Positions 7,677-31,238 of a stretch of DNA of 37,540 nt are shown here, piece after piece. Under the pieces are notes generated by a model. It was not told the origin of the DNA and did no database searches. It was given only the letters and a program-made list of their open reading frames with translations. A program made the translations under genes and the position numbers. Positions within the stretch are counted from its first letter, which is position 1, and every line of letters begins with the position of its first letter. Source of the DNA: an uncultured Ruminococcus sp. (GTDB lineage: Bacteria > Bacillota > Clostridia > Oscillospirales > CAG-272); the NCBI GenBank assembly GCA_902761695.1, contig CACWLT010000017.1, positions 1 through 37,540 on the forward strand. The letters run 5' to 3'.

Positions 7677-8001
7677 GAAACCCTGCGGGTTTTAAATTTC
7701 ATTGTATGTCCCTGCGCGGGACAGGCGGCACGAGGGACACCATCTCATGGCCGACTGAGTTCACGAAGTGAACTCGGGTGCCCACTCGTGCGGGTCCCCC
7801 TTGGCCGGAGAGCATAACTTGTCCTCTCATACCTGTATCGAAAATCAATTGCGCAACCCATGTCCTCACGCGGACTGTGTTTGTGATGCTGAAACATGCG
7901 TAAAATCCCATCGGAGATGGAATTTTACGGTTTGCAGGGTAACCTGCAAACAGCGATCGAAACGCGCATGACAGGGGGCGCGGTAGAGAGAGATAAATAC
8001 T
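7677..8001 (+). repeat. Hairpin-packed dispersed repeat, copy A
   Basis: Fills most of the 448 bases between moxR and the membrane protein gene. Hairpins in order: GAAACCC/GGGTTT (7677-7692); GTCCC 7708-7712 with GGGAC 7718-7722; a long stem GCACGAG (7728-7734) with CTCGTGC (7785-7791), enclosing GAGTTCAC/GTGAACTC (7757-7775); GAGAG/CTCTC near 7809-7830; GTAAAAT/ATTTTAC; and GTTTGCAGG/CCTGCAAAC. It ends with the shared block CAGCGATCGAAACGCGCATG. It lies antisense to the surrounding operon. The remaining bases 8002-8100 are AT-rich around two GAATTC sites and hold no gene. No coding potential is convincing. Confidence 0.85.
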
Positions 8002-8100
8002 GATGTATCACTCCGCTGCTATTGCCGCGGCTGAATTCTTCATTCTTAATTCTGAATTCAAGCTTCTTCCCTTTTCCTTTTCAGCCGGTTTACGGGGCTT

Positions 8101-9219
8101 TCACTCGTTCAGTTCATTGAAGTAGGCCTTGGCGGGGGACTGGGCTTCGAAGGGGATTTCGCCGTTTTCGGCGGATTTGAGGTACTCGCGGTAATAGGCG
8201 GAGAAGACGTCGCCGTAGGGAACGGAGCCGGAGATGGGATCATAGACGGGTTCGGTTTTAGTGACGGGTCCGTCCGCGCCTTCTCCCTCGGATCCGGGAC
8301 CCCGGCCTTCCCCGTCTCCTCCGGGCATATCTCCGGGCATATTTCCCGGCATGTCCCCGGGCATGAGCCCCTCGCCTTCCCCGCCCTCTTCGCCGGGCAT
8401 GAGCATCTCCATTTCCATGCCGGGCTCGCCCTCGCCCTCTTCGCCCTCCCCGGCTTCCTCTTCCTCCATGAGCATGCGCTTGGCCTCCTCCAGCACATCC
8501 AGCATCTCGTTCATGGCGCCCCGGGAGGCCTCGCCGTTTCTGGCCGCGTCCTTGGCCGCCTCCTCGGCCCGGTTGATCTCTCCCAGGGCCTGCAGGACGC
8601 TGTCGGAATTTTCGAGCGCGTCTATGAGGCTGTCCATTTCCTTAGCCAGGGCCTCCTCGCCCATGGTCTCCAGCCGCTGCCGTTCATCCCGGAGCATATC
8701 CAGCATGTCCTGCCAGACCTGTTCCATGGGATCCGGCTCCCGGGCGAACCACGCGGCGGGGACGAAGGCGCTCCCGACGGCCAGAACGAGGGCCAGGAGG
8801 CACAGGACAGCGGACAGGAGGCTCACCGCGCCCCGCAGCCGTTTTTTCTCCGCGCCCGCCAGCGAATCCAGGGCGTCCTGTCTCTGCATGGCGGCGAGGC
8901 CGGAGTAATCATAGCGCAGGGCAAGCATGGTGGAGGTCCGCTCCTTCAGTCCCAGCGCGTCGACCCGTCTCGCTGCCTCCCGCTCGTCCGGAAAGGTGAG
9001 GATCAGGCGGAGAAAGAAGGCCGTCAGTCCGACTCCGGCTGCGATGTACAGCGGGATGCGCGTGTTGCCGTTCTGAGCGATTTTGAATCCCAGGGTGACA
9101 GCCGCGAAGGCAAATCCGCCGGCGGTCAGTCCCGTGACGAGGGAAGACAGGACGGCGAAAAGGGCCAGCCTTCTTCGATAGGGCCGGACCGCCGCAGACA
9201 GGGGATCGGAACGGATCAT
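8101..9219 (-). CDS. Membrane protein with acidic low-complexity tail, MoxR cluster
   Basis: 372 residues, not assigned to a named family. Two N-terminal helices (about 18-42 and 55-72) and a third (about 130-155) are followed by an alpha-helical, charged segment (about 165-255) that is probably a coiled coil. A striking E/G/M/P-rich tract contains MPGDMPGNMPGDMPGG. The C-terminal 50 residues look folded (YDPISGSVPYGDVFSAYYREY). Similar helical membrane proteins head MoxR/DUF58/VWA clusters in other bacteria, and the position here fits that. The start ATG 9219 has GGAGG five bases upstream and a promoter 40 bases upstream, so this is probably the first gene of the operon ending with the rhomboid. 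Its function is unknown. Confidence 0.8.
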   Translation of the reverse strand: MIRSDPLSAAVRPYRRRLALFAVLSSLVTGLTAGGFAFAAVTLGFKIAQNGNTRIPLYIAAGVGLTAFFLRLILTFPDEREAARRVDALGLKERTSTMLALRYDYSGLAAMQRQDALDSLAGAEKKRLRGAVSLLSAVLCLLALVLAVGSAFVPAAWFAREPDPMEQVWQDMLDMLRDERQRLETMGEEALAKEMDSLIDALENSDSVLQALGEINRAEEAAKDAARNGEASRGAMNEMLDVLEEAKRMLMEEEEAGEGEEGEGEPGMEMEMLMPGEEGGEGEGLMPGDMPGNMPGDMPGGDGEGRGPGSEGEGADGPVTKTEPVYDPISGSVPYGDVFSAYYREYLKSAENGEIPFEAQSPAKAYFNELNE

Positions 9220-9255
9220 GGCGTCCTCCGGGTAAACATACTTTTTCTGCGCATG

Positions 9256-9290
9256 ATTATACCATACGCTTTTGAAATTCTGTTTTTAAA
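9256..9290 (-). promoter_or_regulatory. Promoter of the MoxR/DUF58/VWA operon
   Basis: The minus strand reads TATGG-TATAAT, with the -10 at 9256-9261 and extended-10 TGG directly before it. No good -35 hexamer sits 17 bases upstream, so recognition probably relies on the extended -10. It lies between the thioesterase terminator and the first gene of the cluster. Confidence 0.65.
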
Positions 9291-9391
9291 AACGTAAATT
9301 GCGTGAAAACATTTCCGGCGGATTTATGAAGGGAAACCTGCTTTTCTGCCCGCCGCTTCCCATGCGGATCCGCCCGGATGCGGAGACAAGG

Positions 9392-9423
9392 AAAAAGCGG
9401 GGACACACGGACTGCGCTCCCGC
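9392..9423 (-). terminator. Rho-independent terminator of the ECF operon
   Basis: Reading the minus strand, GCGGG and CCCGC enclose an inner five-pair stem (one mismatch, two G-T pairs), and TTTTT follows directly. It begins 24 bases after the thioesterase stop codon. Confidence 0.7.
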
Positions 9424-9446
9424 CTTGATTATATGGTTGTTTCCCG

Positions 9447-9866
9447 TCAGCCTTTATAGCCGGTGCCGGTGAAGAGGGCGATTTTGCGGCCGGTATCGTC
9501 GGTGACGGTGACCTGATACACGCAGACGGTGCGGCCGTCCCTGACGCAGGCTGACTCGGCGATGAGTCTTGTGCCCTTTGCCGCGCTGAGGAACTGGACG
9601 GTCACGTCGATGGCCGCGGTGCCCTCATGGACGTTATTGGAGGACACGGCGAAGGCGAAGTCCGCCAGGGTGAAGATGATCCCGCCCATGACGCCGCCCA
9701 GAGCGTTGCGATGGCTGTCGGTCAGGTCCACGTGGCAGACGCATCCGTCCTCCGTCAGCGCATCCAGCCGGACGCCGTTTTCCGTTGCGAACCGGTCGTT
9801 CTGAAAATACGCCCGGGCCTCTTCCGCTGATGCGAATCGTTTCATTCCGTTTGCTTTCCTTTCCAT
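9447..9866 (-). CDS. PaaI-like hotdog thioesterase
   Basis: 139 residues of the single-hotdog 4HBT/PaaI family. The signature HRNALGGVMGGIIFTLADFAF (from about residue 52) holds the conserved Asn and the catalytic-region GG...LAD. It is followed by TVQFLSAAKGTRLIAES, the usual central strand. Such enzymes hydrolyse acyl- or aryl-CoA thioesters in the cytoplasm. It follows ecfT by 25 bases and precedes a terminator, so it is the last gene of the tryptophan-uptake operon. A link to aromatic acyl-CoA would fit that setting but is inference. ATG 9866 (GAGGAAGG 12 bases upstream) and ATG 9845 (AAAGGA upstream) are both possible starts. Confidence 0.85.
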   Translation of the reverse strand: MERKANGMKRFASAEEARAYFQNDRFATENGVRLDALTEDGCVCHVDLTDSHRNALGGVMGGIIFTLADFAFAVSSNNVHEGTAAIDVTVQFLSAAKGTRLIAESACVRDGRTVCVYQVTVTDDTGRKIALFTGTGYKG

Positions 9867-9891
9867 ATCTGCGTATACCTTCCTCGTTCCC

Positions 9892-10641
9892 TCACGGAAT
9901 CAGGGCCGCGCCGGTGATCAGGGCCGCTGAAATCAGGACCGCCGCCAGATCGACGAGGCCGAAGCCGTACTTTTTGTATCCGGAAGCCCGGGTCCGGAGA
10001 TTGAAGCCCCGCACCTCCGCCGCCGTAGCCGTGGCCCCGGTCCGCCGGATCGAGGAGATCAGCAGCGGGACGCAGAGGGGCAGGATCAGGCCCAGCTTTT
10101 TGAAGATGTTCTTCGTATCGAACTCCACGCCCCGGGCCGTCTGCGCCTCCATGATCCCGCTCATCTCCTCCATGAACTGGGGGATGAACCGGATGGCGGT
10201 GGTCAGGGTGAAGGCGTAGGCGTAGGGCACATGGAGGACCTGCACCAGAGCCCCGGCGATATCCGAGACCCGGGTGACGGTCAGCACCAGGGCAAGGGGC
10301 AGGCACACCGCCAGAAGCCGCAGCACCACCCCCGCCGCCGTGGAAAGACCCTCGTCCGTGACGATCCATAAGAGCCGATTCCCCCGCCGCACGAACAGCG
10401 CCTGCAGGACGAAGAGGAACAGGGACACCTTGAACAGTCCCCGGAAAATGGCGAGCGCCTTCCGGAACGCCCCCGCCGCGACGCCGATCATCAGATCGAA
10501 GAGGATGAGGGCGAGCAGAACAAAGAGATTGTCCGTCAGAAACGCCGCGACGCAGACGCTGAGGGTCAGGGCGATTTTCGTGACGGGGTTCATGCGGTGC
10601 AGCGGGGAATTGCCCGGCACGTACTGAAAGAGATCCGTCAT
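9892..10641 (-). CDS. ecfT: ECF transporter transmembrane component EcfT
   Basis: 249 residues with an N-terminal PGNSPLHRMNPVTKI segment and several hydrophobic helices. The coupling helices carry the two EcfT motifs: TARG in EAQTARGVEF (about 165-174) and a variant VRG in AAEVRGFN (about 208-215; the usual form is A-R-G). EcfT is the membrane scaffold through which ATP hydrolysis by the two ATPases drives the S component. It overlaps ecfA2 by four bases (ATGA), so the two are translationally coupled. By family and context it serves the TrpP-like S component encoded at the head of the operon. Confidence 0.93.
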   Translation of the reverse strand: MTDLFQYVPGNSPLHRMNPVTKIALTLSVCVAAFLTDNLFVLLALILFDLMIGVAAGAFRKALAIFRGLFKVSLFLFVLQALFVRRGNRLLWIVTDEGLSTAAGVVLRLLAVCLPLALVLTVTRVSDIAGALVQVLHVPYAYAFTLTTAIRFIPQFMEEMSGIMEAQTARGVEFDTKNIFKKLGLILPLCVPLLISSIRRTGATATAAEVRGFNLRTRASGYKKYGFGLVDLAAVLISAALITGAALIP

Positions 10642-11462
10642 GCGCCGCGCCTCCTTTCCGCCTTCGCCGCCACAAGGGAGGAGAGTGTCTCCGCGTCGTC
10701 GGCCTCACGGAATCCCTCCCCCAGCTCCCCCGCGATCCGTATGATCTGGGGCGGCAGGAGGGAGGCCTTTTTCATCAATGCCTCGTCCCGGAAGATCTCC
10801 CGGACCGGGCCGTCCGCCAGCAGCCTTCCCCCGGCCATGACCAGGGCGCGGCGGGCGTAGTCCAGGACCACCTCCATATCGTGGCACACCATGACGACGG
10901 TGGTGCCCTCTTCTTCGTTGAGCTGCCGGATAAAGTCCATGATCCGGGTGCACTCCCGGTAGTCCAGGCCCGTGGTGGGCTCGTCCAGGATCAGCACGGC
11001 GGGGGACGGCGCCAGGGTGGAGGCCAGGGCAACCTGCTGTCTCTGTCCCCGGCTCAGGGCGAAGGGATCCTCGTCCCCGGTGAAGCCGAAGCGCTCCAGC
11101 AGCTCATCGGTCCTCGTCCTGATCTTATCCTCCTCCCGCCTGCCCCAGACGGCCCGCAGTCCGAAGGCGATCTCCTCCCGGACGGTGTTCCGGCAGATCT
11201 GGCGGTCCGGGTTCTGGAAGAGGAAGCCCACCTGCGCCGCCCGTTCGCTGACTCTGGATTTCGCGGTGTCCAGCCCGTTGACGGTCATCTTTCCCTCCGT
11301 GGGCTTCAGCAGTCCGTCGATGAGCTTGACGGTGGTGGTCTTCCCCGCGCCGTTCTCGCCCAGGATGGCGGCAAACTCCCCCTTTTCGATATGGAAGGAC
11401 AGGCCCGCCACGGTCTGCGCGTTGCCCGGATAGCTGTAGCTTACGTTCTCCGCACGAATCAT
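10638..11462 (-). CDS. ecfA2: ECF transporter ATPase EcfA2
   Basis: 274 residues. Walker A GENGAGKT (35-42), Q-loop FQNPDRQ (82-88), signature LSRGQ (136-140), Walker B LILDEPT (157-163) and the switch His in VMVCHD. FQNPD and the C-terminal extension after about residue 215 match ECF ATPases. The signature has Arg in place of the usual first Gly (LSGGQ); partner domains in ECF dimers do vary here. It overlaps both neighbours by four bases (ATGA). Confidence 0.92.
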   Translation of the reverse strand: MIRAENVSYSYPGNAQTVAGLSFHIEKGEFAAILGENGAGKTTTVKLIDGLLKPTEGKMTVNGLDTAKSRVSERAAQVGFLFQNPDRQICRNTVREEIAFGLRAVWGRREEDKIRTRTDELLERFGFTGDEDPFALSRGQRQQVALASTLAPSPAVLILDEPTTGLDYRECTRIMDFIRQLNEEEGTTVVMVCHDMEVVLDYARRALVMAGGRLLADGPVREIFRDEALMKKASLLPPQIIRIAGELGEGFREADDAETLSSLVAAKAERRRGA

Positions 11463-12298
11463 CCCATCACCCTCCTTGCCGCCTCCACGGCCTCCTCCGC
11501 GCTGACGCAGACCGGAACCTCCGTCCCCGTCTTCTCCGCGAGGAGGGAGGAAAACAGCGCCGCCCGGGGGCAGTTGACGCCGATCCGCTCCAAAAGAGGG
11601 ATGTCCGAGAGGACCCCGCGCACCGGCCCCTCCTTCACGATCTCCCCGTCGTTCAGCACGGCCAGCCGGTCGGCGAATTCCGAGAGCAGCATGATCTTCT
11701 GTTCCACCACCACCACGGTCATGCCGTGCTCCCGGTTGAGGGTTCGCAGCAGGGTGAAGATCTGGCGGCTGCTGAAGGGGTCCAGCTCTCCCGTGGGCTC
11801 GTCCAGCACCAGGATCTGCGGCCGCAGGGCGACGAGAGAGGCGATGGCCACCTTCTGCCGCTGCCCGCCGGACAGGGAGGCGATGGTTCTTTCCCTGAGG
11901 GAGGAGATGCCCACCTGCTCGAGAGCCGCGGTCAGCCTGTCCCCGATCTCCTCATGGGGGACGCCGAAGTTCTCCAGCCCGTAGAGGATCTCGTCCTCCA
12001 CCACGGAGGAGATGATCTGGCTGTCCACGTCCTGGAAGACCGTCCCCACCAGCCGGGAGAGGTCCGTCAGCCGGTTGTCCGCCGTATCGAGACCGCCCAC
12101 CCGGACCGCGCCGTAAAAATCCCCGGGGAAGGCATGGGGAATGATGCCGCTCATGCAGTGGAGGAGGGTGGTTTTGCCCGCCCCCGCCGGACCGATGATG
12201 CCGAGGAAAGCTCCGTCCGGAACGGTGAGGTTCACGTCCCGGAGGGCATCTCTTTCGGAGACTTCATACCGGAAGGTCAGAGATTGCACTTCAATCAT
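11459..12298 (-). CDS. ecfA1: ECF transporter ATPase EcfA1
   Basis: 279 residues. Walker A GPAGAGKT (36-43), Q-loop TVFQDVDSQ (86-94), signature LSGGQ (142-146), Walker B LVLDEPTGELD (163-173). The switch histidine position reads VVVEQK, so Gln or Glu replaces His here. Together with EcfA2 it forms the heterodimeric motor of an ECF importer. The start ATG 12298 has AGGAG seven bases upstream. The upstream gene of the same operon (TrpP-like S component) is 881 bases away, and the whole space is filled by repeat copies B and C plus extra hairpins. Confidence 0.92.
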   Translation of the reverse strand: MIEVQSLTFRYEVSERDALRDVNLTVPDGAFLGIIGPAGAGKTTLLHCMSGIIPHAFPGDFYGAVRVGGLDTADNRLTDLSRLVGTVFQDVDSQIISSVVEDEILYGLENFGVPHEEIGDRLTAALEQVGISSLRERTIASLSGGQRQKVAIASLVALRPQILVLDEPTGELDPFSSRQIFTLLRTLNREHGMTVVVVEQKIMLLSEFADRLAVLNDGEIVKEGPVRGVLSDIPLLERIGVNCPRAALFSSLLAEKTGTEVPVCVSAEEAVEAARRVMG

Positions 12299-12439
12299 AA
12301 AACGCTCCTGCGAAGGTAGGAAACGCTTCGCGTTTCCAGAATAATGCCCCTGCGCGGGGCGGGCGGCACAGGGGACACCATCTCATGGCCGACTGAGTTC
12401 ACGAAGTGAACTCGGGTGCCCACCTGTGCGGTGTCCCCG

Positions 12440-12480
12440 GAAGAATGCTCTGCATTCTTCTGGAGTTGCTTCGCAACTCC
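12440..12480 (+). repeat. Two-hairpin cassette, first insertion in copy B
   Basis: Hairpins GAAGAATGC/GCATTCTTC (12440-12460) and GGAGTTGC/GCAACTCC (12462-12480), each with a 3-base loop. Copies A, E and F have no cassette at this point and read directly from GGGTCCCCC into TTGGCC. Confidence 0.85.
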
Positions 12481-12553
12481 GTTGGCCGGGGAGCATAATC
12501 TTTGCTGCTCACGTCTGTATCGAAAATCGATTGTTCATCCCATGTCCTCGCCT

Positions 12554-12594
12554 GAAGAATGCTCTGCATTCTTCGGGAGTTGCTCCGCAACTCC
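12554..12594 (+). repeat. Two-hairpin cassette, second insertion in copy B
   Basis: The same two hairpins again (12554-12574 and 12576-12594), now after TCCTCGCC. Copies E and F carry the cassette at this same place; copy D reads straight through (TCCTCGCGCGGACCAC). Confidence 0.85.
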
Positions 12595-12802
12595 GGCGAA
12601 CCACGGTGCGTCAGCCGTAACATGCGTGAAAATCCGTCAGAGACGTCTTTTCACGGTTTCCTCGGGGACCTCGGAAACAGCGATCGAAACGCGCATTGGA
12701 TTATGAGGGCTGGCAATAAAGGTAAGCTGTTCTCTTTGCAGACTTGCTTTATTCTCGCGAGGCTGATCTTTCAGTTTCGTCTTCTCTACAACGCGACCGT
12801 GT

Positions 12803-13048
12803 AATGGAAGCGCGTTTTGATCTCCGGATTATTCAGCTTCCGAATCGGGCCCGCGCCATCGATGGCGTCATGTTTCGCCGCGAAGCGTGGGTTACACGGT
12901 CGAGGTTGAATAAAGGGTCGTGCTGTCGCCTTATGCCATATGGCCAAGGGGGACCCTCGGGGGAGGGGCACCTTCGGCCAGAGATGGTGTCCCTCCCCCG
13001 CGCCTGTCCCGCGTAGGGACATAAAATCCGGAAACGCGAAGCGTTTCC
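12803..13048 (-). repeat. Dispersed hairpin repeat, divergent inverted copy C
   Basis: Same family, opposite orientation to copy B, so B and C are tail to tail. Read on the minus strand it starts with GGAAACGC/GCGTTTCC (13030-13048), then GTCCC/GGGAC, then a long stem whose outer part is CGGGGGAG/CTCCCCCG, and CTTGGCC. The 3' half has diverged: the usual GTGAAAT stem is replaced by CGCCATCGATGGCG, and the end reads GATCAAAACGCGC. About 100 bases between B and C (12697-12802) show no recognisable gene. Confidence 0.7.
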
Positions 13049-13056
13049 TACCTTCC

Positions 13057-13139
13057 CGCAGTCCGCAGACTGCGTTCCCTTCTTGAAGTTCAGGCTGAAC
13101 TTCATCCTTCTCCGCCGGGAGGTCAGGAATGACCTCCCG
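13057..13139. repeat. Cluster of three unrelated short perfect hairpins
   Basis: CGCAGTC/GACTGCG (13057-13074), GAAGTTCA/TGAACTTC (13085-13103) and CGGGAGGTCA/TGACCTCCCG (13116-13139, GGAA loop). They lie between repeat copy C and the end of the TrpP-like gene. Each is a perfect stem with a 3-4 base loop like those inside the repeats, but the arm sequences are different. None has a T-run, so they are not ordinary terminators. Confidence 0.8.
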
Positions 13140-13179
13140 AGCTGATTCAGAGGGGCGGGGATCTGTAAGGGCGGAGCCT

Positions 13180-13719
13180 TTACTTCCGCAGTACGCGGCG
13201 GAGGGGGAAGTACAGGATCTGCACGAGGACCATGTTGATGAGGGCGGTGCAGAGGACGATGGGGATATAGGCAACAAGTCCTTCCGTCGTGGCTTTCACA
13301 AAGGCGAAGAGGCAGACGGTATAGGTGCCGCCGGACAGCACGGTGGATACAAAGGCGGCGATCATGGGATTCGCGTCAAACTTGCCGAACTTCATGGGCA
13401 CGTTGATCAGGATACCCATGGCCACGCCGCCCACCAGCTCGGAAATCAGGTTGAGCCACGGCGTTCCGGGGAGGAACTGGCAGATGGCTCCGGCCAGCAG
13501 TCCGATGATCGCGCTCTGATAGAGCTTCGGGCGGGTCAGCAGGATGGCGAGGCAATAGGAGGCGATGACGAAATTCGGCTTCATGCCGAAGAAGTTGACG
13601 ACGCTGCCCACCACCAGCTTCAGCACGGCCCCCGCCGCCAGAAGCACGGCCACCACGATCAGATCCTGAATGGAGAAGCCCTTCTTCTCCTCGACGGTTA
13701 CGGTTCTCTTCTCTGCCAT
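13180..13719 (-). CDS. trpP: TrpP-like ECF substrate-binding (S) component, tryptophan
   Basis: 179 residues, five or six hydrophobic helices, and a soluble N-terminal 18 residues. It resembles the TrpP/YhaG family: AVLKLVVGSVVNFFGMKPNF, CLAILL, GTPWLN, and a basic C terminus. S components bind the substrate at the membrane and dock on EcfT/EcfA. The tryptophan assignment rests mainly on the T-box leader with a UGG specifier upstream, supported by family likeness. Start ATG 13719 (MAEKRTVT) has GGAGAG seven bases upstream; a longer reading frame to 13839 would run into the leader terminator and is rejected. The ECF ATPase genes follow after repeats B and C. Confidence 0.85.
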   Translation of the reverse strand: MAEKRTVTVEEKKGFSIQDLIVVAVLLAAGAVLKLVVGSVVNFFGMKPNFVIASYCLAILLTRPKLYQSAIIGLLAGAICQFLPGTPWLNLISELVGGVAMGILINVPMKFGKFDANPMIAAFVSTVLSGGTYTVCLFAFVKATTEGLVAYIPIVLCTALINMVLVQILYFPLRRVLRK

Positions 13720-13819
13720 GACAAACTCTCCTTTCCGCTTTGCGGATGTAAAATGATTTGATGGTTTCCGGGACAGAGAAGTCGGTTCATACAGATTCCG
13801 ATCCGAACGGAATTTGTAT

Positions 13820-14098: not shown

Positions 14099-14104
14099 TA
14101 GCAC

Positions 14105-15267: not shown

Positions 15268-15288
15268 AGATATCCTTTCATGGTTGAC

Positions 15289-18700: not shown

Positions 18701-18724
18701 AATGCAATCGCTCCGTGTAAGGAA

Positions 18725-19076
18725 GGAAACCCTGCGGGTTTCCAAATTAAATGCCCTGCTCAGGGCGGGAGGCACGGGGGGACACCATCTCAGGCCGAAG
18801 GTTTCCCCCCGTGCAGGGGTGGGACACCATCTCAGGCCGAAGGTTTCCCCCCGTGCAGGGGTTTCCTTGGCCGGAGAGCATAACTTGTCCTCTCATGCCT
18901 GTATCGAAAATCAATTGTGCAACTCATGTCCTCGCGCGGACCACATTGCGTCAGCTGAAACATGCGTGAAATCCCATCAGAGATGGAATTTCACGGTTTG
19001 CTCTGCCCATTGGGGCGACGCAAACAGCGATCGAAACGCGCATGACAGGGGGCGCGGTGGAGAGAAGGTAAAAACT
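18725..19076 (+). repeat. Dispersed hairpin repeat, copy D
   Basis: Lies between the ABC ATPase and permease genes, antisense to them. Hairpins: GGAAACCC/GGGTTTCC (18725-18743); GCCCT 18753-18757 with AGGGC 18762-18766; a long stem GCACGGGG with CCCCGTGC; GAGAG/CTCTC; GTGAAAT/ATTTCAC with inner CATC/GATG; GTTTGC/GCAAAC. It lacks the GAGTTCAC module and the two-hairpin cassette. It ends CGAAACGCGCATGACAGGGG like copy A. Bases 19077-19136 hold nothing recognisable. Confidence 0.85.
18779..18862 (+). repeat. Exact 42-base tandem duplication inside copy D
   Basis: Two identical 42-base units, 18779-18820 and 18821-18862. Each runs from GGGACACCATCTC to CCCCGTGCAGGGGT. The duplication gives two possible 3' partners for the single outer 5' arm GCACGGGG. 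Confidence 0.95.
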
Positions 19077-19136
19077 CTTTTTCAGCCTCGCGGGGTGGAG
19101 GCAGTGCGGGGACGGTTAATCCGCAGTCAGCGGTTG

Positions 19137-21214: not shown

Positions 21215-21228
21215 GGCACACGGAAAGC

Positions 21229-21268: not shown

Positions 21269-21280
21269 TAGGAAAGGTAA

Positions 21281-21691
21281 GAAACGCTGCGCGTTTCAAA
21301 TTGAATGGCCTTGCGCAGGCCGGGCGGCACGAGGGACACCATCTCAGGCCAATTGATTTGCAAGCAAATCGGTGCCCCTCGTGCGGGTCCCCCTTGGCCG
21401 TATAGCATAACCTGACAGCTCGCACTTGCATCGAAGATCGACAGTATATCCCACGTCCTCGCCTGAAGAATGCTCTGCATTCTTCGGGAGTTGCTCCGCA
21501 ACTCCGGCGGACCACGTTGCGTCAGCTGAAACATGCGTGAAATCCCATCAGAGATGGAATTTCACGGTTTTCTCGGGAGCCTCGAAAACAGCGAACGAAA
21601 CGCGCATGACACGGAACGCGATAGAGGATAGATGAAACAGCACGTTCGATTCCGCGGCTGTAACTACCTCAAAAATCTTGTCAAAATTGCG
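21281..21691 (+). repeat. Dispersed hairpin repeat, copy E (long-tail subfamily)
   Basis: Between the rubrerythrin terminator and the SLH-CAP gene, in sense orientation. Hairpins: GAAACGC/GCGTTTC (21281-21297); GGCCT 21307-21311 with AGGCC 21317-21321; stem GCACGAG (21327-21333) with CTCGTGC (21378-21384), enclosing GATTTGC/GCAAATC in place of GAGTTCAC; the two-hairpin cassette; GTGAAAT/ATTTCAC; GTTTTC/GAAAAC. After CGAAACGCGCATGACACGGA it shares a further 60-80 bases with copy F only (GAAACAGCACGTTC, CTTGTCA). No promoter is clear. Confidence 0.85.
21465..21505 (+). repeat. Two-hairpin cassette in copy E
   Basis: GAAGAATGC/GCATTCTTC (21465-21485) and GGAGTTGC/GCAACTCC (21487-21505), matching the cassettes in copies B and F. 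Confidence 0.85.
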
Positions 21692-21730
21692 ATTTGTGTG
21701 AACACGGCCCGATTCTTCAGGAGGTCATCC

Positions 21731-25043: not shown

Positions 25044-25113
25044 CGGGCAGCTCCCGCCGAAGGGAAGGCTATACACATCACCATCACTGTCCTTCGGAGG
25101 TCCCGAGATTTTT

Positions 25114-25815
25114 ATGTCCGGATTCGATACGTTTGTTTTTGTCATCGAGCTCGTGAGCATCACGTCCTTCGGCATATCCGGGGCTCTGACCGCCATCCGG
25201 AAGCACATGGACGTGTTCGGCGTCATCATTGTGGCGGTCACAACAGCGCTGGGCGGAGGCGTCATCCGGGACCTGCTGCTGGGGGTGATCCCGCCGAAGA
25301 GCTTCAACCGGCCCATCTACGCCATCGTCACGGCCTCCTTCGCCCTCATGACCTTCCTCATCGAATATCACCACGCGAAGCGGCACACCCCCGGCGAGCC
25401 CTTCACGGGGAAATTCACCGAGGGGGCCATGTTCTGGCTGGACACCCTGGGGCTGGCCATCTTCACCATGGTGGGCGTCGCCGTGGCTCACGAATCCTCC
25501 GTGCCGGACAACAATTTCCTCTACTGCTTCGTGGGGGTCCTGACGGGGGTGGGCGGCGGCGTCCTGCGGGATCTGCTCTGTCAGAACATGCCCTACATCT
25601 TCGTGAAGCACTTCTACGCCAGCGCCTGCGTCATCGGAGCCGTGGTCTGCGAGGTCATGTGGGCGCCCGCCGGAAAGATCGCCGCCATGCTGACAGGCAC
25701 AGCGGTGGTCATGCTGCTCCGCTTTTTCGCCGCCCGCTTCCGCTGGAACCTCCCCCACGTCCCGGATATGAACGTCCCGCCGGCGGACTCTCCCGACGAT
25801 CCGGCGCGCAAATAA
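25114..25815 (+). CDS. TRIC-type (UPF0126/YadS) membrane channel protein
   Basis: 233 residues, seven hydrophobic helices in two similar halves, each with a glycine-rich motif: GGGVIRDLLLG (47-57) and GGGVLRDLL (about 148-156). This is the trimeric intracellular cation channel fold found in prokaryotes as UPF0126. K+ conduction is known for some members. The GGAGG at 25096-25100 is 13 bases from ATG 25114, longer than normal. A terminator follows immediately after the stop codon. Confidence 0.92.
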   Translation: MSGFDTFVFVIELVSITSFGISGALTAIRKHMDVFGVIIVAVTTALGGGVIRDLLLGVIPPKSFNRPIYAIVTASFALMTFLIEYHHAKRHTPGEPFTGKFTEGAMFWLDTLGLAIFTMVGVAVAHESSVPDNNFLYCFVGVLTGVGGGVLRDLLCQNMPYIFVKHFYASACVIGAVVCEVMWAPAGKIAAMLTGTAVVMLLRFFAARFRWNLPHVPDMNVPPADSPDDPARK

Positions 25816-25842
25816 AAAAGACCGTCTTCGGGCGGTTTTTTC
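25816..25842 (+). terminator. Rho-independent terminator after the TRIC gene
   Basis: ACCGTC-TTCG-GGCGGT (25821-25836) with a run of T after it and a run of A before it, so it could act in both directions. Confidence 0.9.
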
Positions 25843-26039
25843 ATACTAATCTCAAGCTAAAAAGGAAACGCGGCTTCTTGAAAGGGAAGCCCAGAGCAGC
25901 AGGCTGCTCGGCAAGAACTTTATAATAACCTGGTGCAGCTTTCTTCTCAAAGTGCAGCACGGGGTAACGTACAGTGTGTTTCAAATTCTGCTTTTTCATA
26001 TGCGTTAATCGAATTTCCTTTTTAAGCTGAGAATAGTAT
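25843..26039 (+). mobile_element. MITE-like element, copy 1, with 24-base inverted ends
   Basis: 197 bases with imperfect terminal inverted repeats: 25843-25866 and 26016-26039 match at 20 of 24 positions (outermost ATACTA...; both arms contain TAAAAAGGA). A TA could be the target duplication if the ends are taken as CTAATCTC. Inside are a hairpin GAGCAGC/GCTGCTC and a GGCTTC/GAAGCC stem. There is no open frame of note. About 130 bases recur at 37370-37505. It abuts the preceding terminator and ends 18 bases before a promoter. Confidence 0.8.
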
Positions 26040-26056
26040 CACGGGCAAATTTATTC

Positions 26057-26085
26057 TTGACATTTGGAAAAGTTTGTGGTATTCT
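26057..26085 (+). promoter_or_regulatory. Promoter of the lipoprotein gene
   Basis: TTGACA (26057-26062), 17-base spacer ending TGG, TATTCT (26080-26085). It lies just outside the right end of the MITE-like element. Confidence 0.85.
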
Positions 26086-26123
26086 GTCCGTATACGGAGC
26101 CACATGAGAAAGGAGGGGAGACC

Positions 26124-27200
26124 ATGAACGCACGGATCCGGAAAACCGCGCTGCTGCTGACCGTCCTCTGTCTGCTGTCCGTGTCCTGCGCCTTGTGGAA
26201 AACAGACCGGGCGTGGACCGTGTCGGAGTTCGTCATCCCCTCCGGCTACGATGTGTCGGCGGTCCGGGGATTCGATCCGGAGGCGGGCACCGTGACGGTC
26301 TTCGCCTACCGGTACGCCGACGGGCCCCCCTGCCTGCTGACGGCGGAGGAGGACGGCCTGATCCGGGCAAGGACCGCGCTTCCGGGGGCGGAGCGGCTGA
26401 TGGGACTGACCTGGCTCCCCGACGGCGGCTTCATGGGGATCCGGGAAATCGATGGGGAGCAGATCGCCGAGCGGTACGGCCCGGACGGCTCCCTGACCGG
26501 CTCCTTCTCCGCCGACTGCCTGCTTGCGCCGTTTTTGTCAGGTACGGAGGAGACCTCCGGGGAAATAAGCCGCCGGAAAAAAGAGTGGATCGGCATGCTC
26601 TCGGACGGCGGCGCCGGGCTGATCTTTCAGACGTCCTCCGCCCTGTATATCTGTCCCGGCCCAGCGGACGCCCTCTTTGACTGCGGTGAGGGGGCCCTTC
26701 TTTCGGACGCGATCCGGGCGCTGCCCCTGCCGGATGGGATCCTTTCGGATGATCTGCCGCTGCTCTCCCCGGACGGGACGCTGTTTGTGCGGTGGCTCGG
26801 CGCGGGCGGACAGCACGGGGCGTTCCTGAATGCGGAAACGGGGGAGGCCCTCTGCGTCTTTCCTCTCCCCTGGCGCACCCGGATTCTGGGCTTTGACGGC
26901 GCGGGACGCCTTCTGTTCACGGAGGGCGGCGGAGTCCTGGCCGTCACCCCCGGTGAAAATCCCGCACCCGCCGTTCACGTCCTCGACCGGACCGGCCTGA
27001 AGCTGCCCCGGAACCCGTCCGTCTGCCTGCTCCCGGCGGAGTCCGGCACCGGTGAGGCGTCCGTCGCCCTGTTCTGGGAGAGCGTGAAGGATCCCGAGGC
27101 CGCGCGGAGACGGGACGGGGAGAGCGACGGCGCTTATTCGGCCAGGACGGCAGCCCTGCCCCGGCAGACGCGGATTCTGATTTTCAGCCCCGCGCCGTGA
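26124..27200 (+). CDS. Lipoprotein of unknown function, probable beta-propeller
   Basis: 358 residues from ATG 26124 (AGGAGGGG seven bases upstream). Signal with lipobox LSVSC (Cys22). The rest is soluble and beta-rich with several weakly repeated blocks such as LTWLPDGGFMGI, LLSPDGTLFVRW and GFDGAGRLLFTEGG. Each is a D-G turn between strands, as in beta-propellers. I do not recognise a named family. It stands alone between its own promoter and the tRNA on the other strand. Confidence 0.78.
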   Translation: MNARIRKTALLLTVLCLLSVSCALWKTDRAWTVSEFVIPSGYDVSAVRGFDPEAGTVTVFAYRYADGPPCLLTAEEDGLIRARTALPGAERLMGLTWLPDGGFMGIREIDGEQIAERYGPDGSLTGSFSADCLLAPFLSGTEETSGEISRRKKEWIGMLSDGGAGLIFQTSSALYICPGPADALFDCGEGALLSDAIRALPLPDGILSDDLPLLSPDGTLFVRWLGAGGQHGAFLNAETGEALCVFPLPWRTRILGFDGAGRLLFTEGGGVLAVTPGENPAPAVHVLDRTGLKLPRNPSVCLLPAESGTGEASVALFWESVKDPEAARRRDGESDGAYSARTAALPRQTRILIFSPAP

Positions 27201-27244
27201 AGCCGGGAATCTATCCTCTATATATGTAGTTAAAAACGTCCAAG

Positions 27245-27273
27245 AAAAATGGCACCCGGAATTTCCGGATGCC
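27245..27273 (-). terminator. Terminator downstream of tRNA-Thr
   Basis: On the minus strand GGCATCCGGAA pairs with TTCCGGGTGCC, followed by ATTTTTCTT. It begins 11 bases after the tRNA 3' end. Confidence 0.8.
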
Positions 27274-27283
27274 GATTCTTCTA

Positions 27284-27356
<73 letters not shown>

Positions 27357-27388
27357 ATTGAGAGCGGTTTTCGCTGTCAACGTCAAAG

Positions 27389-27417
27389 ATTATACCACCC
27401 CGCCCCCTCTTTGTCAA
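27389..27417 (-). promoter_or_regulatory. Promoter of tRNA-Thr
   Basis: TTGACA (27412-27417), 17-base spacer ending TGG, TATAAT (27389-27394). Both hexamers are perfect. Confidence 0.92.
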
Positions 27418-27505
27418 GAGGTTTTTTGAAATTTCCGAAAAGAATTTTCCGCGGGCTTTTTCAGGGATTTCCCGCGCGCCGACCCGCCTTTGTTGTCCAC
27501 CCGTC

Positions 27506-27534
27506 TTGATTTTCCGCCGGAACTATGGTATAAT
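27506..27534 (+). promoter_or_regulatory. Promoter of the DUF2232-like / gdpP genes
   Basis: TTGATT (27506-27511), 17-base spacer ending TGG, TATAAT (27529-27534). Confidence 0.85.
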
Positions 27535-27579
27535 CATACAATACAATAGGCGCATTGTCTGCAGAAGGGAGGCGCGGTG

Positions 27580-28758
27580 ATGCGGGAAAACAAACCTGAC
27601 CCTTCCCCGGCGGATCGATCCCACGGGGATCCGTCCCCGGATGAAAACGGCGCGGCACAGGACCGCAGTCTTCCCCGGCGGCTGTTCTCCGTCATGGAGA
27701 CCCGGGACGATCTGCCCCGGATGCCCGGCTTCATGGCCGCCGTGTTCATCCTCCTGGCCGCCGGAGCCGCCGCCGCTTCCGCCCGGATCTGCTCGCCCGC
27801 GGTGCCGGATGACCCCATGGCGGCGGAGAACATCGCGGGGATTTTAGCCTCCCTGCCCTTTCTGCCTCTGGCGGTGACCCTCTATTCCATCACGATCCTG
27901 CTCTGGCGGCGGGTGGCCTCCCTGCTCTGCACGCCCCTCTCCTTCGGGCTGATGCTCCTTCTGGGGACGCGGTTTTCCGACGCGGCGGTGCTGAGCCTGG
28001 CGATTCTGCCCATGGCCTACGCCTTTGCCGTCTCCCTGATTTCCCGGGAGGACCGGTTCCGGCGGGTGATGACCCTGGCCATTTTCGCGGCCTGCGCCCT
28101 CGGGATCGCGGCGGCGGTGCGGATCGGCCTGGATTTCGGTTCCCCGGAAAATCTCCGGGACGCCTTCATGACCGCGGTTCCCGACATGATCGGCGCCGCG
28201 CTGCTCGGACCTGCCGGGGGGATGCAGGCCGCTTCCGGGGAGGGCGCCGCCGCCATGCTGACCTCCCTGAGCCTGTACGATACGGCCCGCTCCCTCTTCA
28301 TCATGCTCCCCGCGTATTTCGGCATGTTCTGCGTAGTCCTCGCCTGGGCCTGCGACCGGATCATCCGGCTGCTCTTCGCCTGGCTGAACTGCGCCGACGT
28401 CTTCACGGATGAAGGGGCGGAGGTCTCCATGCCGGTGCGCTTCGCGGCGGTATACGCGGCCTTCCTCATCCTCTCCATCCTGACGCCGGGCAGCGTCTTC
28501 CCCATGGCGCGGTGCATGCTGCAGAGCGTTGTGCTGGTCATGGGCCTGCCCTGCGCGGCGGTGGGCGTGCGGCGGATCGGGGAGCGCCTCTCCGACAGCC
28601 TGTTCTATATGACGCGTGAAAAGCTCTTTACGGCCATGCTCCTCTTCGTGCTGTTCGCGGCGGTGGGAGCCTATCCCTTCCTGCTCATCACATCGGCGGT
28701 GGGCATGATCTCCGTCCTCCGCCGGGGAAGGGCGCGGGACCGGGGAAACAACGAATGA
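27580..28758 (+). CDS. Polytopic membrane protein, probable DUF2232/YybS-like
   Basis: 392 residues from ATG 27580 (GGGAGG seven bases upstream; a GTG at 27577 is less well placed). A polar N-terminal 45 residues precede about eight hydrophobic helices. The sequence shows no clear catalytic motif. The DUF2232 (YybS) assignment rests on topology and on the order membrane protein / gdpP / rplI that is conserved in Firmicutes; sequence likeness alone is weak. Function unknown. The gdpP start is 37 bases downstream, so the two are probably co-transcribed. Confidence 0.72.
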   Translation: MRENKPDPSPADRSHGDPSPDENGAAQDRSLPRRLFSVMETRDDLPRMPGFMAAVFILLAAGAAAASARICSPAVPDDPMAAENIAGILASLPFLPLAVTLYSITILLWRRVASLLCTPLSFGLMLLLGTRFSDAAVLSLAILPMAYAFAVSLISREDRFRRVMTLAIFAACALGIAAAVRIGLDFGSPENLRDAFMTAVPDMIGAALLGPAGGMQAASGEGAAAMLTSLSLYDTARSLFIMLPAYFGMFCVVLAWACDRIIRLLFAWLNCADVFTDEGAEVSMPVRFAAVYAAFLILSILTPGSVFPMARCMLQSVVLVMGLPCAAVGVRRIGERLSDSLFYMTREKLFTAMLLFVLFAAVGAYPFLLITSAVGMISVLRRGRARDRGNNE

Positions 28759-28795
28759 CGGATTGCGCCGGGAATCCCGGACGAAAGGACGACGT

Positions 28796-30787
28796 ATGCC
28801 GAAATCAGGGAATCAGAACAACGACCTGCCGGGACTCCGGATCGGGACGGTCATCGGGATCGTGCTCGCCGGAGCGGTCTGCATCGCCGCGCTGGCCGTC
28901 GGGATCGCAAGGCTCAATCTGCCCGCCCTCCGATGGGGCGCCGTCTGCCTGGCTGTGTTTCTCGTCGCCTCCTTCCTTTTGTGGTTCATCATCGAGCGGC
29001 ACGGAAAGCTCCCTCGAGGCGAACGGCTCTCCCCGGTCATGGGGCGGATCATGTTCGACGCGGTGGTGAAGATGTCGAGCCCCGTGTTCATCTGCGGCTC
29101 GGACGAGCGGATCCTCTGGTACAACAGCGCCATGGAGAACCTCTTCTCCGGGGACAGCAAGCTCTACGGCACCTCGGTGAAGGAGCTCTTCGGCGTGACC
29201 CTGGACAACATCCGCCAGGGGGAGGACGTCCGGATCTCCTGGGAGGGACGCCTCTTCCGGGCCAGATACAGCCATATCCGCAGCGAGGAGGACGACTTCG
29301 CCCTGATCCTGACGGAGGATCTCACCGAGACCGAGGCGCTCCGGACCGAGCTGGCGGGCAGTGAGCCGGCGGTCTGCTATATCATGATCGACAATCTGGC
29401 GGAGATGGTCCAGTACGACAGCGAGCTCTACCGTCCCGCCTCCGCCCGGGTGGACGCCGCCCTCAGAGCCTGGGCCGACCAGTACAACGGCATCCTCCGG
29501 GAGTACGAGCGGGACCGCTATCTCTTCCTGACGGAGGCCCGGGTGGTGGACGCCATGGTCGCCGCGAAATTCGACATCCTGGACCGGGTCCGGGCGGTGA
29601 AGGTGGGCGAATCCAGCCTGCCCCTCACCATCTCCATGGGCGTCTGCGCCGTGCCGGGTACCTTTGAGGAAAAGGAACGGGCAGCGGCGGCCGCGCTTGA
29701 CCTGGCTCTGTCCCGTGGCGGGGATCAGGCGGTGGTAAAGCGGGACGAGGGCACGGAATTCTTCGGCGGCGTCACAAGGTCCGTCCAGAAGCGCACCAAC
29801 GTTCAGGCCCGCCTGGTCTCCAACGAGCTGATCGGACAGATGCGCGCCGCCTCCAACGTCATCATCATGGGACACCGGCGGGCGGACTTCGACGCCTTCG
29901 GTTCCGCCGTGGGCATCGCGCGGCTGGCCATGTACTGCGGCGCCCGGGTGAACATCGCCGTGGACCTCAGCAACCGGGATATCCTGGGTCAGCGGCGGAT
30001 CATGGAGAGCGAGGAGGACTTCATCGGCGTGGTCATCTCCCCCGGCGAGGCGCTGGATCTTCTGGAGCTGGGCACCCTGGTGATCATGACGGACGTCTCC
30101 AATATGGCCAACGTGGAGAGCCTGGAGCTGGCGCAGCGCACGGACAAGCTGGCGGTGATCGACCACCACCGGAAGACCGCTGAGTTCGACCGGGAGCCGG
30201 ACGTGGAGTATATCGATTCCTCCGCCTCCTCCGCCTGCGAGCTCATCGCCGAAATGCTGGAGCAGGCGCTGCCCCGTGAGGAGCTTTCCGCCGCCGAAGC
30301 CTCCGTCATGCTGGCCGGCATCATGCTGGATACCAAGCAGTTCACCAAGAATACCGGCACCCGTACCTTCTCCGCCGCCATGTTCCTCCGGGACCGGGGC
30401 GCCGACCCCACCGAGGTCCGGGAGCTCTTCAAGGAGAGCTTCGAGGAGTACAGCGGCGAGGCGAAATTCCGCCGGAACGTGGAGATCTACCGGGGCTGCT
30501 GCGCCATCGCCGTCGCGGATGCCGACGCGGACGCCAATCCCGTCGTCGCGGCCAAGGCGGCGGACAACCTGATCATGGTGGACGGCATGCGGGCCGCGTT
30601 CACCCTCATGGAAATGGGGGACAGCGTCAAGATCTCCGCCCGCTCCGCAGGGGATCTCAACGTCCAGCTCATCATGGAGCAGATGGGCGGGGGAGGCAGC
30701 TTCTCCGGCGCGGCCGCCGTCTCGGAGGGCAAATCCGTCCCCCAGCTCGTGGAAGAACTCAAAGCCGCCATCGATAAGGTACTTTGA
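28796..30787 (+). CDS. gdpP: Cyclic-di-AMP phosphodiesterase GdpP
   Basis: 663 residues from ATG 28796 (AAAGGA six bases upstream). Two helices (about 16-36 and 47-66), a PAS-like domain (about 85-185), a degenerate GGDEF domain (about 190-320, ending LALSRGGDQAVVK), then DHH and DHHA1 domains. The DHH metal ligands are visible: GHRRADFD (His360, Asp364, Asp366), TDVSN (Asp433) and DHHRK (Asp456-His457-His458). Substrate c-di-AMP is cleaved to pApA at the inner membrane face. The usual GGGGH of the DHHA1 domain reads GGGGS here (MGGGGSFSGAAA), so a substrate-binding His may be missing. Repeat copy F separates it from rplI. Confidence 0.92.
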   Translation: MPKSGNQNNDLPGLRIGTVIGIVLAGAVCIAALAVGIARLNLPALRWGAVCLAVFLVASFLLWFIIERHGKLPRGERLSPVMGRIMFDAVVKMSSPVFICGSDERILWYNSAMENLFSGDSKLYGTSVKELFGVTLDNIRQGEDVRISWEGRLFRARYSHIRSEEDDFALILTEDLTETEALRTELAGSEPAVCYIMIDNLAEMVQYDSELYRPASARVDAALRAWADQYNGILREYERDRYLFLTEARVVDAMVAAKFDILDRVRAVKVGESSLPLTISMGVCAVPGTFEEKERAAAAALDLALSRGGDQAVVKRDEGTEFFGGVTRSVQKRTNVQARLVSNELIGQMRAASNVIIMGHRRADFDAFGSAVGIARLAMYCGARVNIAVDLSNRDILGQRRIMESEEDFIGVVISPGEALDLLELGTLVIMTDVSNMANVESLELAQRTDKLAVIDHHRKTAEFDREPDVEYIDSSASSACELIAEMLEQALPREELSAAEASVMLAGIMLDTKQFTKNTGTRTFSAAMFLRDRGADPTEVRELFKESFEEYSGEAKFRRNVEIYRGCCAIAVADADADANPVVAAKAADNLIMVDGMRAAFTLMEMGDSVKISARSAGDLNVQLIMEQMGGGGSFSGAAAVSEGKSVPQLVEELKAAIDKVL

Positions 30788-30825
30788 GCCGACCAGCCAG
30801 GATTCTTCCCGGCCGCACAAGGAAA

Positions 30826-31238
30826 GAAACGCTGCGCGTTTCAAGAATAATGTCCCTACGCGGGACTGGCGGCACGAGGGACACCATCTCATGGCCGACT
30901 GAGTTCACAAAGTGAACTCGGGTGCCCACTCGTGCGGGTCCCCCTTGGCCGGGGAGCATAATCCTTGATGCTCACATCTATATCGAAAATCGATTATGTA
31001 TCCCTTGTCCTCGCCTGAAGAATGCTCTGCATTCTTCGGGAGTTGCTCCGCAACTCCGGCGGACCACGTTGCGTCAGCTGTAACATGCGTGAAATCCCAT
31101 CAAACGCAGTCGCGCACCCGTGGGGGCGACGCAAACAGCGATCGAAACGCGCATGACACGGACCGCGATAGAGGACAGATGAAACAGCACGTTCAATTCC
31201 GCGGTTATAACTGGCTCGAAAGTCTTGTCATAATTGTG
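30826..31238 (+). repeat. Dispersed hairpin repeat, copy F (long-tail subfamily)
   Basis: Fills most of the 582 bases between gdpP and rplI, sense orientation. Hairpins: GAAACGC/GCGTTTC (30826-30842); GTCCC 30852-30856 with GGGAC 30862-30866; GCACGAG/CTCGTGC enclosing a GAGTTCAC/GTGAACTC hairpin; GAGCAT/ATGCTC; the two-hairpin cassette. The next stem is broken: GTGAAATCCCATCA is followed by ACGCAGTCGCG, and the 3' arm ATTTCAC is absent. It shares the GAAACAGCACGTTC tail with copy E. Bases 31239-31319 hold no recognisable feature. Confidence 0.85.
31017..31057 (+). repeat. Two-hairpin cassette in copy F
   Basis: GAAGAATGC/GCATTCTTC (31017-31037) and GGAGTTGC/GCAACTCC (31039-31057). Confidence 0.85.

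What the first reader, a model, noticed from the sequence alone, without database searches (positions are those of the whole stretch)
7677..31238. A six-copy modular repeat whose stems are conserved by compensatory changes
Copies A (7677-8001), B (12319-12696), C (12803-13048, inverted), D (18725-19076), E (21281-21691) and F (30826-31238) share one order of hairpins but not one sequence. Seen directly: the second hairpin is GTCCC/GGGAC in A and F, GCCCC/GGGGC in B, GCCCT/AGGGC in D, GGCCT/AGGCC in E. The long stem is GCACGAG/CTCGTGC in A, E and F, GCACAGG/CCTGTGC in B, GCACGGGG/CCCCGTGC in D, CGGGGGAG/CTCCCCCG in C. The 3' stems are GTGAAAT/ATTTCAC (D, E), GTAAAAT/ATTTTAC (A), GTGAAAA/TTTTCAC (B), then GTTTGC/GCAAAC, GTTTTC/GAAAAC and GTTTCC/GGAAAC. 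Both arms change together, so the fold, as RNA or as single-stranded DNA, appears to be selected. Single-stranded blocks such as CAGCGATCGAAACGCGCATG and CACCATCTCA are nearly constant, as expected for recognition sites. I know no named family that matches.
Basis: partly seen in the sequence, partly recalled or inferred. Interest (0 to 1): 0.93.

Follow-up and report, generated by a model that had tools for sequence, protein, structure and literature searches.

The report
Dispersed repeats with shuffled hairpin modules
This bacterial genome carries more than a hundred scattered copies of a non-coding DNA repeat built from a fixed series of hairpins; the copies were likely inserted as mobile DNA, and the hairpins are likely swapped between copies as whole units, which would imitate the paired mutations normally read as proof of a selected RNA fold.

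Summary
The repeat is real, but six copies is the tip of it. The same genome holds at least 123 copies of the 5' domain; 13 of 25 genus members carry it, and 395 genomes of the family gave only two weak matches outside the genus (a search with limited sensitivity). B and C are one composite: two inverted units with facing 3' ends. F has lost two 3' stems. Orthologous sites for A, B+C, D and E are empty in the relatives read, and one copy sits inside a phage gene cluster, so the copies are most likely insertions. Arms change together far beyond shuffles, but not in the classical way: each helix has a small menu of perfect-palindrome alleles, G-U intermediates are rare (13 of 2434 cells), and many changes are base-pair flips. 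In the own genome 26 of 26 units have different module combinations, and 8 of 10 module pairs are unlinked. Best reading: exchange of whole hairpins between copies under a fold constraint (one A.A mismatch kept in 65 of 66 long stems without insert). No Rfam family matched; no enzyme could be tied to it (Y1, TnpB, reverse transcriptase, IS630 tested). Nearest known kind: modular interspersed repeats such as pneumococcal BOX.

The parts
7671..8030 (+). Copy A: single unit, type-1 3' core; 3' terminal stem GCGCG..CCGCGG; orthologous site empty in three relatives
12314..13054 (.). Composite B+C: type-1 unit and inverted type-2 unit, 3' ends facing; about 740 bp; eight relatives have 11-55 bp between the flanking genes, own genome 881 bp
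12314..12700 (+). Copy B: type-1 unit with extra hairpins (GAAGAATGC.. and GGAGTTGC.., twice) inserted
12754..13054 (-). Copy C: type-2 unit (5' domain shared, 3' core different)
13055..13148 (.). Further palindromic hairpins outside C, ending ..GGGAGGTCAGGAATGACCTCCCGAGCTGATTC; similar outer hairpins flank units in G002-type loci
   Evidence: sequence read by eye
18719..19093 (+). Copy D: single type-1 unit with a 42-bp tandem duplication in its long stem (18776-18859); relatives have 12-18 bp here, own genome 436 bp
18726..18742 (+). H1 of copy D: GAAACCC-TGC-GGGTTTC, one of eight perfect-palindrome alleles seen in 95 units
18953..19046 (+). Type-1 3' core of copy D: closing stem CATGC/GCATG around GTGAAAT/ATTTCAC, GTTTGC/GCAAAC and GCG-ATCGAAA-CGC
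21274..21705 (+). Copy E: single type-1 unit, just after a gene-end hairpin with T-run (by eye); no unit at this site in two relatives; tail ends GTGTGAACAC
30820..31263 (+). Copy F: type-1 unit with two 3' stems broken; tail ends CGTGAACAC
31320..31342 (-). Isolated H1-type hairpin (AGGAAACCCTGCGGGTTTCC on the - strand) downstream of F
   Evidence: sequence read by eye

Best explanation
These are copies of a non-coding, hairpin-built interspersed repeat that likely spread by insertion as a non-autonomous mobile element, and whose stem pairs vary together mainly because whole hairpins are likely exchanged between copies. Shown: a fixed order of modules (H1, H2, long stem H3, constant linkers, a four-helix 3' core, a 3' terminal stem), at least 123 copies of the 5' domain in this genome, orthologous sites without it in relatives, both orientations relative to genes, and a small menu of mostly perfect-palindrome alleles per hairpin that combine almost freely. 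Inferred: an enzyme supplied in trans (not found) inserts the copies into gaps between genes; homologous recombination or gene conversion between the constant linkers moves hairpins as cassettes and homogenises the menu within each species; selection (or failure to spread) removes copies whose folded form is broken, so palindromy and a specific mismatch persist while stem sequence drifts.
For: Copy number and spread: at least 123 in G000, 138 in G002, 69 in G018, 69 in G024, 47 in G016; 13 of 25 genus members; 10 of 395 family genomes at E<=1e-5, eight of them in the genus. Insertion: between the flanking genes relatives have 11-55 bp at B+C against 881 (8 of 8 fetched), 12-18 bp at D against 436 (3 of 3), 9-19 bp at A against 442 (3 of 3, by eye), and no unit at E in 2 of 2 with both flanks. 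One copy lies between phage major tail and major head genes in a viral contig. Orientation: 22 sense, 34 antisense between co-directional genes. Module exchange: 26 of 26 haplotypes distinct in G000, 28 of 31 in G002-type loci; 8 of 10 module pairs unlinked in each (p>0.1), with neighbours H2-H3 linked (p=0.001, G000) as a positive control. Arms stay matched: 90 of 95 H1 hairpins perfect; wobbles rare; hybrid arms rare (L022, L074). Fold constraint: A.A mismatch in 65 of 66 long stems without insert, adjacent T-A 46 / G-C 20 with no exception.
Against: No transposase or autonomous copy was tied to the repeat: Y1 in none of the five strong carriers, TnpB not over cut-off in any carrier, no unit in the nine reverse-transcriptase stretches read, IS630 elements present but with different ends. 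No target-site duplication was established. Unlinked modules could in part reflect saturation of old copies rather than recombination; linkage exists for H2-H3 (p=0.001) and H3-Pa (p=0.032) in G000 and H1-H2 (p=0.009) and H2-H3 (p=0.043) in G002-type loci. H1 was picked with a pattern that requires AAA and TTT in its arms, so three of its seven pairs were fixed by the choice and units without it were dropped. A possible GGCC/GGCC loop contact fits RNA-level selection, with 4 compensatory and 3 wobble against 2 mismatched cases of 94.
Confidence: 0.66

Rival explanations
1. A functional structured RNA gene family, each copy kept by selection for its RNA fold through stepwise compensatory mutation.
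For: Covariation far beyond shuffles and slides on three of five measures; A.A mismatch and a covarying T-A/G-C pair kept; the reverse-complement strand folds more stably as RNA in 55 of 65 units; A.C cells in the long stem would be G.U on that strand (28 A.C against 8 G.T).
Against: Few G-U intermediates (13 of 2434 cells) and many transversion flips; modules reassort between copies; copies in both orientations to genes; one promoter-like match in the B+C region with 0.3 expected; patchy within the genus.
Confidence: 0.15
2. Replication template switching (quasipalindrome correction) perfects the stems, so covariation needs neither selection nor exchange.
For: Perfect palindromes, multi-base changes, few wobble intermediates; the mechanism is documented (PMC8794818, passages read).
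Against: It copies one arm onto the other and would be expected to erase the A.A mismatch kept in 65 of 66 long stems without insert; it does not explain the same few alleles recurring in many combinations.
Confidence: 0.12
3. A single-stranded-DNA transposon derivative of the IS200/IS605 or REP kind, mobilised by a Y1 transposase recognising the hairpins.
For: Hairpins along the unit and at its 5' end, no target duplication seen, intergenic location, strand-symmetric palindromes.
Against: Y1_Tnp (PF01797) was found in 8 of 25 genus genomes but in none of the five strong carriers; it does occur in weak carriers G004 and G022. The genomes are drafts of 78-94% completeness.
Confidence: 0.04
4. 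A miniature element with terminal inverted repeat TATAGTGTGTTCACAC moved by an IS630-type transposase.
For: This palindrome stands directly before H1 in 21 of 32 places examined (30 loci, two of them overlapping) and at both ends of one 420-bp copy (24 matches in G000, reversed control 0). IS630-type DDE_3 genes occur in 5 of 25 genomes, all of which carry the repeat.
Against: In the eight DDE_3 loci fetched the palindrome was not found at an element end: with four mismatches allowed only two stray matches appeared (L209, L212), and the ends seen in L211, L214 and L215 are of the TTTATAGC/TTAGAGCAATTCC type. Strong carriers G016 and G018 show no DDE_3 gene.
Confidence: 0.1

Closest known systems
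BOX elements of Streptococcus pneumoniae (boxA-boxB-boxC; PMC3049150, passages read)
   Same: Modular, interspersed, predicted stem-loop, sharing MITE features; modules vary between copies.
   Different: BOX varies by number of boxB modules; here a fixed series of hairpins varies by which palindrome allele fills each slot, units are about 330-430 bp and some are paired in inverted composites. No sequence comparison with BOX was made.
bcr repeats of the Bacillus cereus group (recalled; the term seen only in the listing)
   Same: Recalled as structured, dispersed, high-copy, mobile-like repeats.
   Different: Recalled as shorter and without such swapped stems; not compared by sequence.
REP/BIME elements and IS200/IS605-derived elements (recalled; a paper on GTAG- and CGTC-tagged REPs seen only in the listing)
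   Same: Palindromic intergenic units, sometimes in inverted pairs (recalled).
   Different: Much smaller units (20-40 bp in that listing); the Y1 transposase tied to their mobility was not found in strong carriers.
Template-switch RNA hairpins (PMC8794818, passages read)
   Same: Perfect stems and multi-base 'compensatory' changes that need no G-U step.
   Different: Template switching acts on one stem at a time; here alleles recur in free combination across many loci and a mismatch is conserved.

Membership tests
Rfam families (release 15) | Match at or above the family's gathering score | tested here: not met
   Whole window: only a tRNA; around copy A at E<=5 only one chance-level riboswitch match. 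Other copies not tested at the lax threshold.
MITE-like non-autonomous element | Dispersed copies with presence/absence at orthologous sites | tested here: met
   Sites A, B+C, D, E without the unit in the relatives read; copy in phage DNA.
MITE-like non-autonomous element | Terminal inverted repeats | tested here: inconclusive
   Composites have inverted 5' domains at both ends; most singles show it at one end only; one 420-bp copy has TATAGTGTGTTCACAC at both.
MITE-like non-autonomous element | Target-site duplication | tested here: inconclusive
   None evident by eye in the flanks printed; relatives too diverged for exact junctions.
MITE-like non-autonomous element | Ends shared with an autonomous transposon | tested here: not met
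   No transposase-bearing copy among those read; IS630 ends differ. Other transposase families not searched.
IS200/IS605, REP-RAYT | Y1 transposase in the host | tested here: not met
   0 of 5 strong carriers; 8 of 25 genus genomes.
TnpB/IscB guide-RNA (HEARO-like) elements | RNA-guided nuclease gene in the host or HEARO Rfam match | tested here: not met
   PF07282 over cut-off in 1 of 25, not a carrier; one match below cut-off in carrier G024; no Rfam match. IscB-specific domains not searched.
Group II intron / retroelement | Reverse transcriptase linked to the unit | tested here: not met
   RVT_1 in 5 of 5 strong carriers and 7 of 20 others, but no unit in the nine RT stretches read.
BOX elements | boxA/boxB/boxC sequence modules | not tested
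   Only architecture compared, from PMC3049150 passages.
Functional structured RNA | Discrete transcript | not testable with these tools
   No RNA-seq available.

The most novel reading that the evidence does not exclude
A nucleic-acid counterpart of protein domain shuffling: more than a hundred folded loci per genome share one architecture, and whole hairpins, not bases, are the unit of variation. Each slot draws from a species-specific menu of perfect stems that moves between loci, with the fold alone under selection. It would be a natural system in which strong 'covariation' arises without compensatory mutation, possibly in a family of paired, outward-read RNA genes with terminator-like end hairpins (seen by eye in the distant versions of G012 and G004).
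Probability: 0.3. Interest if true: 0.85.

Novelty: new variant of a known kind. Interest (0 to 1): 0.6.

Why it matters
Covariation of stem arms is standard evidence for a functional RNA. Here arms covary strongly while the alleles look exchanged as blocks among dispersed copies, so covariation tests on multicopy repeats may overstate selection. The family also offers a large natural set (hundreds of folded loci in several related genomes) for measuring what is conserved when stem sequence is free: linkers, one A.A mismatch, possible loop contacts and palindromy itself.

Tried and rejected
Known RNA family: no. Group II intron, retron or diversity-generating retroelement as source: RTs exist in carriers, some beside proteins that look like DGR targets, but no unit lies in the nine RT stretches fetched. 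RNA-guided TnpB: not over cut-off in carriers. Y1/REP: not in strong carriers. IS630: present in some carriers, other ends. Autonomous copy: two inverted pairs of units 1.7-2 kb apart enclose ordinary genes (by eye a PfkB-like sugar kinase in G024 and a phosphodiesterase-like ORF in G002), not a transposase. Cis-regulatory RNA: orientation to flanking genes is mixed. Pure template switching: disfavoured by the conserved mismatch. Model R2's automatic structure did not capture H2 and H3, so it served as a finder only. The pattern (and of the T-A/G-C count) forced the two A letters of the mismatch; one search recounted without forcing them: 65 of 66, the exception being copy E, whose loop carries a hairpin insert; 29 further units have the insert form and were left out. 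Of 30 core pairs, 22 were used for the G-T/A-C count; the eight left out hold 10 of the 13 G-U cells. Pair counts treat related copies as independent; R-scape was not available. Literature searches for such a repeat gave nothing relevant in their listings (one search returned no paper). The MAFFT alignment of site A was poor on the own left flank; gap lengths there were read by eye. One script used a wrong search pattern and was corrected.

Full report
What is there. Copies A, B, D, E and F share one order: H1, a 7-3-7 palindrome after AGGAARG or similar; H2 (for example GTCCC/GGGAC); the long stem H3 with CACCATCTCAGGCCGAAGG or a variant inside; the linker TTGGCC....GCATAA; a GTCC/GGAC hairpin, in some copies with extra hairpins; a 3' core closed by CATGC/GCATG around three hairpins; and a 3' terminal stem GCGCG...CCGCGG or a variant. 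C is the 5' domain with a different 3' half, and B and C face each other as one composite of about 740 bp. F has lost two 3' stems; D has a 42-bp tandem duplication.

How many and where. The own genome is a draft of 3.66 Mb in 437 contigs, 82.9% complete. blastn places: 64 and 59, with only 40 of 116 and 40 of 113 candidates scored. The 5'-domain model finds at least 123 in G000, 138 in G002, 69 in G018 and in G024, 47 in G016, 36 in G012, 28 in G004, 22 in G022, 21 in G015, 1-4 in four others and none in 12 of 25 genus members; 141 candidates per genome were scored, so the high counts are lower bounds. In 395 genomes drawn from the family, 10 match at E<=1e-5: eight in the genus and two others with one weak match each (8 candidates scored per genome under stricter filters, and G004, which matches, is not among the ten, so this search misses weak carriers). 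The 20-base core motif occurs exactly in only two named genomes of the contig collection, an Oscillospiraceae MAG (SIG615) and an uncultured Ruminococcus MAG (RUG12348); records very near the window's genome may be left out there. I treat the SIG615 loci as the genome G002, since L061 and L072 show the same unit with the same flanks.

Insertion. A 14.9-kb stretch of the window compared with 25 genus genomes shows the flanking genes side by side in relatives. At B+C, eight of eight relatives fetched have 11-55 bp between the flanking genes where the own genome has 881. At D three of three have 12, 14 and 18 bp against 436. At A three have 9-19 bp against 442 (by eye). At E two relatives align on both sides without a unit. 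No unit was found at E<=1e-5 in any of the 20 stretches of relatives fetched. A viral contig carries a unit between genes for a major tail protein (phrog_885, E 4e-19) and a major head protein (phrog_544, E 2e-50). Of 75 units or pairs with predicted genes on both sides, 67 are single and 8 paired; between co-directional genes single units lie sense 22 times and antisense 34 times. Codon-usage gene calls place no gene wholly inside a unit of the window; called starts run into the edges of D and E.

Do the arms covary? Yes. On 83 distinct 3' cores from several genomes, 11 of 30 pairs show change on both sides; 193 double-changed cells against 69 shuffled; 92.4% paired against 84.7%; slides collapse to 23-44%. 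Two measures, the number of pairs with such change and the number of pair types, are not above shuffles. RNAalifold without guidance proposes the same inner hairpins but not the closing stem, which it pairs differently. The pattern is unlike stepwise RNA compensation. Columns 19-47 read UA 44, GC 31, AU 8 and no wobble; 56-103 read GC 62, CG 10, UA 7 and 3 unpaired; G-U makes up 13 of 2434 cells. In 22 core pairs there are 1799 Watson-Crick, 3 G-T, 7 A-C and 8 other cells. H1 in 95 units has eight perfect alleles covering 90 units, and five units with imperfect arms; these units were picked by a pattern that fixes three of the seven pairs. G-C to C-G flips have no wobble path.

Why they covary. 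In G000, 26 type-1 units show 26 different combinations of H1, H2, H3, core stem Pa and core stem Pb; mutual information does not exceed shuffles for 8 of 10 module pairs, the exceptions being the neighbours H2-H3 (p=0.001) and H3-Pa (p=0.032). In G002-type loci 28 of 31 are distinct, with H1-H2 (p=0.009) and H2-H3 (p=0.043) linked and the other 8 pairs not. The menus differ between genomes (for example GATGAATT in G002, GTGAAA and GATGAACT in G000). This is what exchange of whole hairpins across constant linkers within a genome would give. Hybrid stems with arms of two alleles occur (L022, L074) but are rare.

Is the fold nevertheless constrained? In 65 of 66 long stems without a two-base loop spacer an A.A mismatch is kept (the exception, copy E, carries a hairpin insert there), next to a pair that is T-A in 46 and G-C in 20 (the patterns gave 40/20 and 41/20 but forced the A letters). 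Simple palindrome perfection should have removed the mismatch. The loop GGCC and the downstream GGCC form a possible contact: 85 unchanged, 4 AGCC:GGCT, 3 wobble, 2 mismatched of 94 parsed; most of the changed cases belong to related short stems, so this is weak. The reverse-complement strand folds more stably as RNA in 55 of 65 full units; with DNA parameters the strand as read is the more stable in 18 of 65. The long stem has 28 A.C cells (G.U on that strand) against 8 G.T. If an RNA exists it may be the opposite strand to the one first read.

Deeper anatomy. The palindrome TATAGTGTGTTCACAC stands directly before H1 in 21 of 32 places (two loci overlap) and occurs 24, 18 and 7 times in G000, G002 and G018 against 0 for the reversed control; one 420-bp copy (L012) has it at both ends. 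In distant genus members (G012, G004) the related elements are inverted pairs of about 420 bp whose outer hairpins look by eye like bidirectional intrinsic terminators (AAAAACGCC..GGCGTTTTT). A consensus scan of B+C finds 1 promoter-like site (0.3 expected) and 3 terminator-like sites (1.0 expected).

Mobiliser. Not found. Y1 transposases: 8 of 25 genus genomes, 0 of 5 strong carriers. TnpB: over cut-off in one non-carrier. Reverse transcriptases: 5 of 5 strong carriers and 7 of 20 others, but no unit in the nine stretches read. IS630-type DDE_3: 5 of 25, all with some copies of the repeat, but not G016 or G018, and with other ends where ends could be read. Two pairs of units further apart enclose ordinary genes. 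Other transposase families were not searched.

Comparison. By architecture the nearest described kind is the modular BOX repeat of pneumococcus (PMC3049150, passages). The paper on template switching (PMC8794818, passages) gives the main alternative cause of perfect stems and notes that compensatory changes are commonly believed to pass through G-U. Searches of the held literature listed nothing relevant to this repeat.

Noticed in passing
window 25841-25944 and 37368-37469: A second repeat of about 100 bp (two pieces, 86-95% identical), unrelated to the hairpin units.
   Followed up: no
window 1237-1380: 15/30-bp repeats inside a minus-strand gene (repetitive protein segment).
   Followed up: no
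window 27284-27356 (-): tRNA gene (Rfam RF00005), the only Rfam match in the window at gathering thresholds.
   Followed up: no
L180, L183, L186: Reverse transcriptases near proteins that look like diversity-generating retroelement targets (judged by eye).
   Followed up: partly
L181, L184, L185: A conserved RT of about 400-430 aa preceded by a small conserved ORF of about 164-171 aa in three genus members, no unit nearby; function unknown.
   Followed up: no
L037, L041, L054, L057, L169:2329-2384 and other G002-type loci: Another hairpin repeat (CTTGCCTCGCCCTCCGGGAGAGGTGGCGCAGTCGAAGACTGTGACGGAGAGGG or similar) often follows the 3' end of units.
   Followed up: no
L200-L208 (G012, G004): Distant versions of the element are bracketed by terminator-like hairpins whose stems also vary as whole palindromes.
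   Followed up: partly
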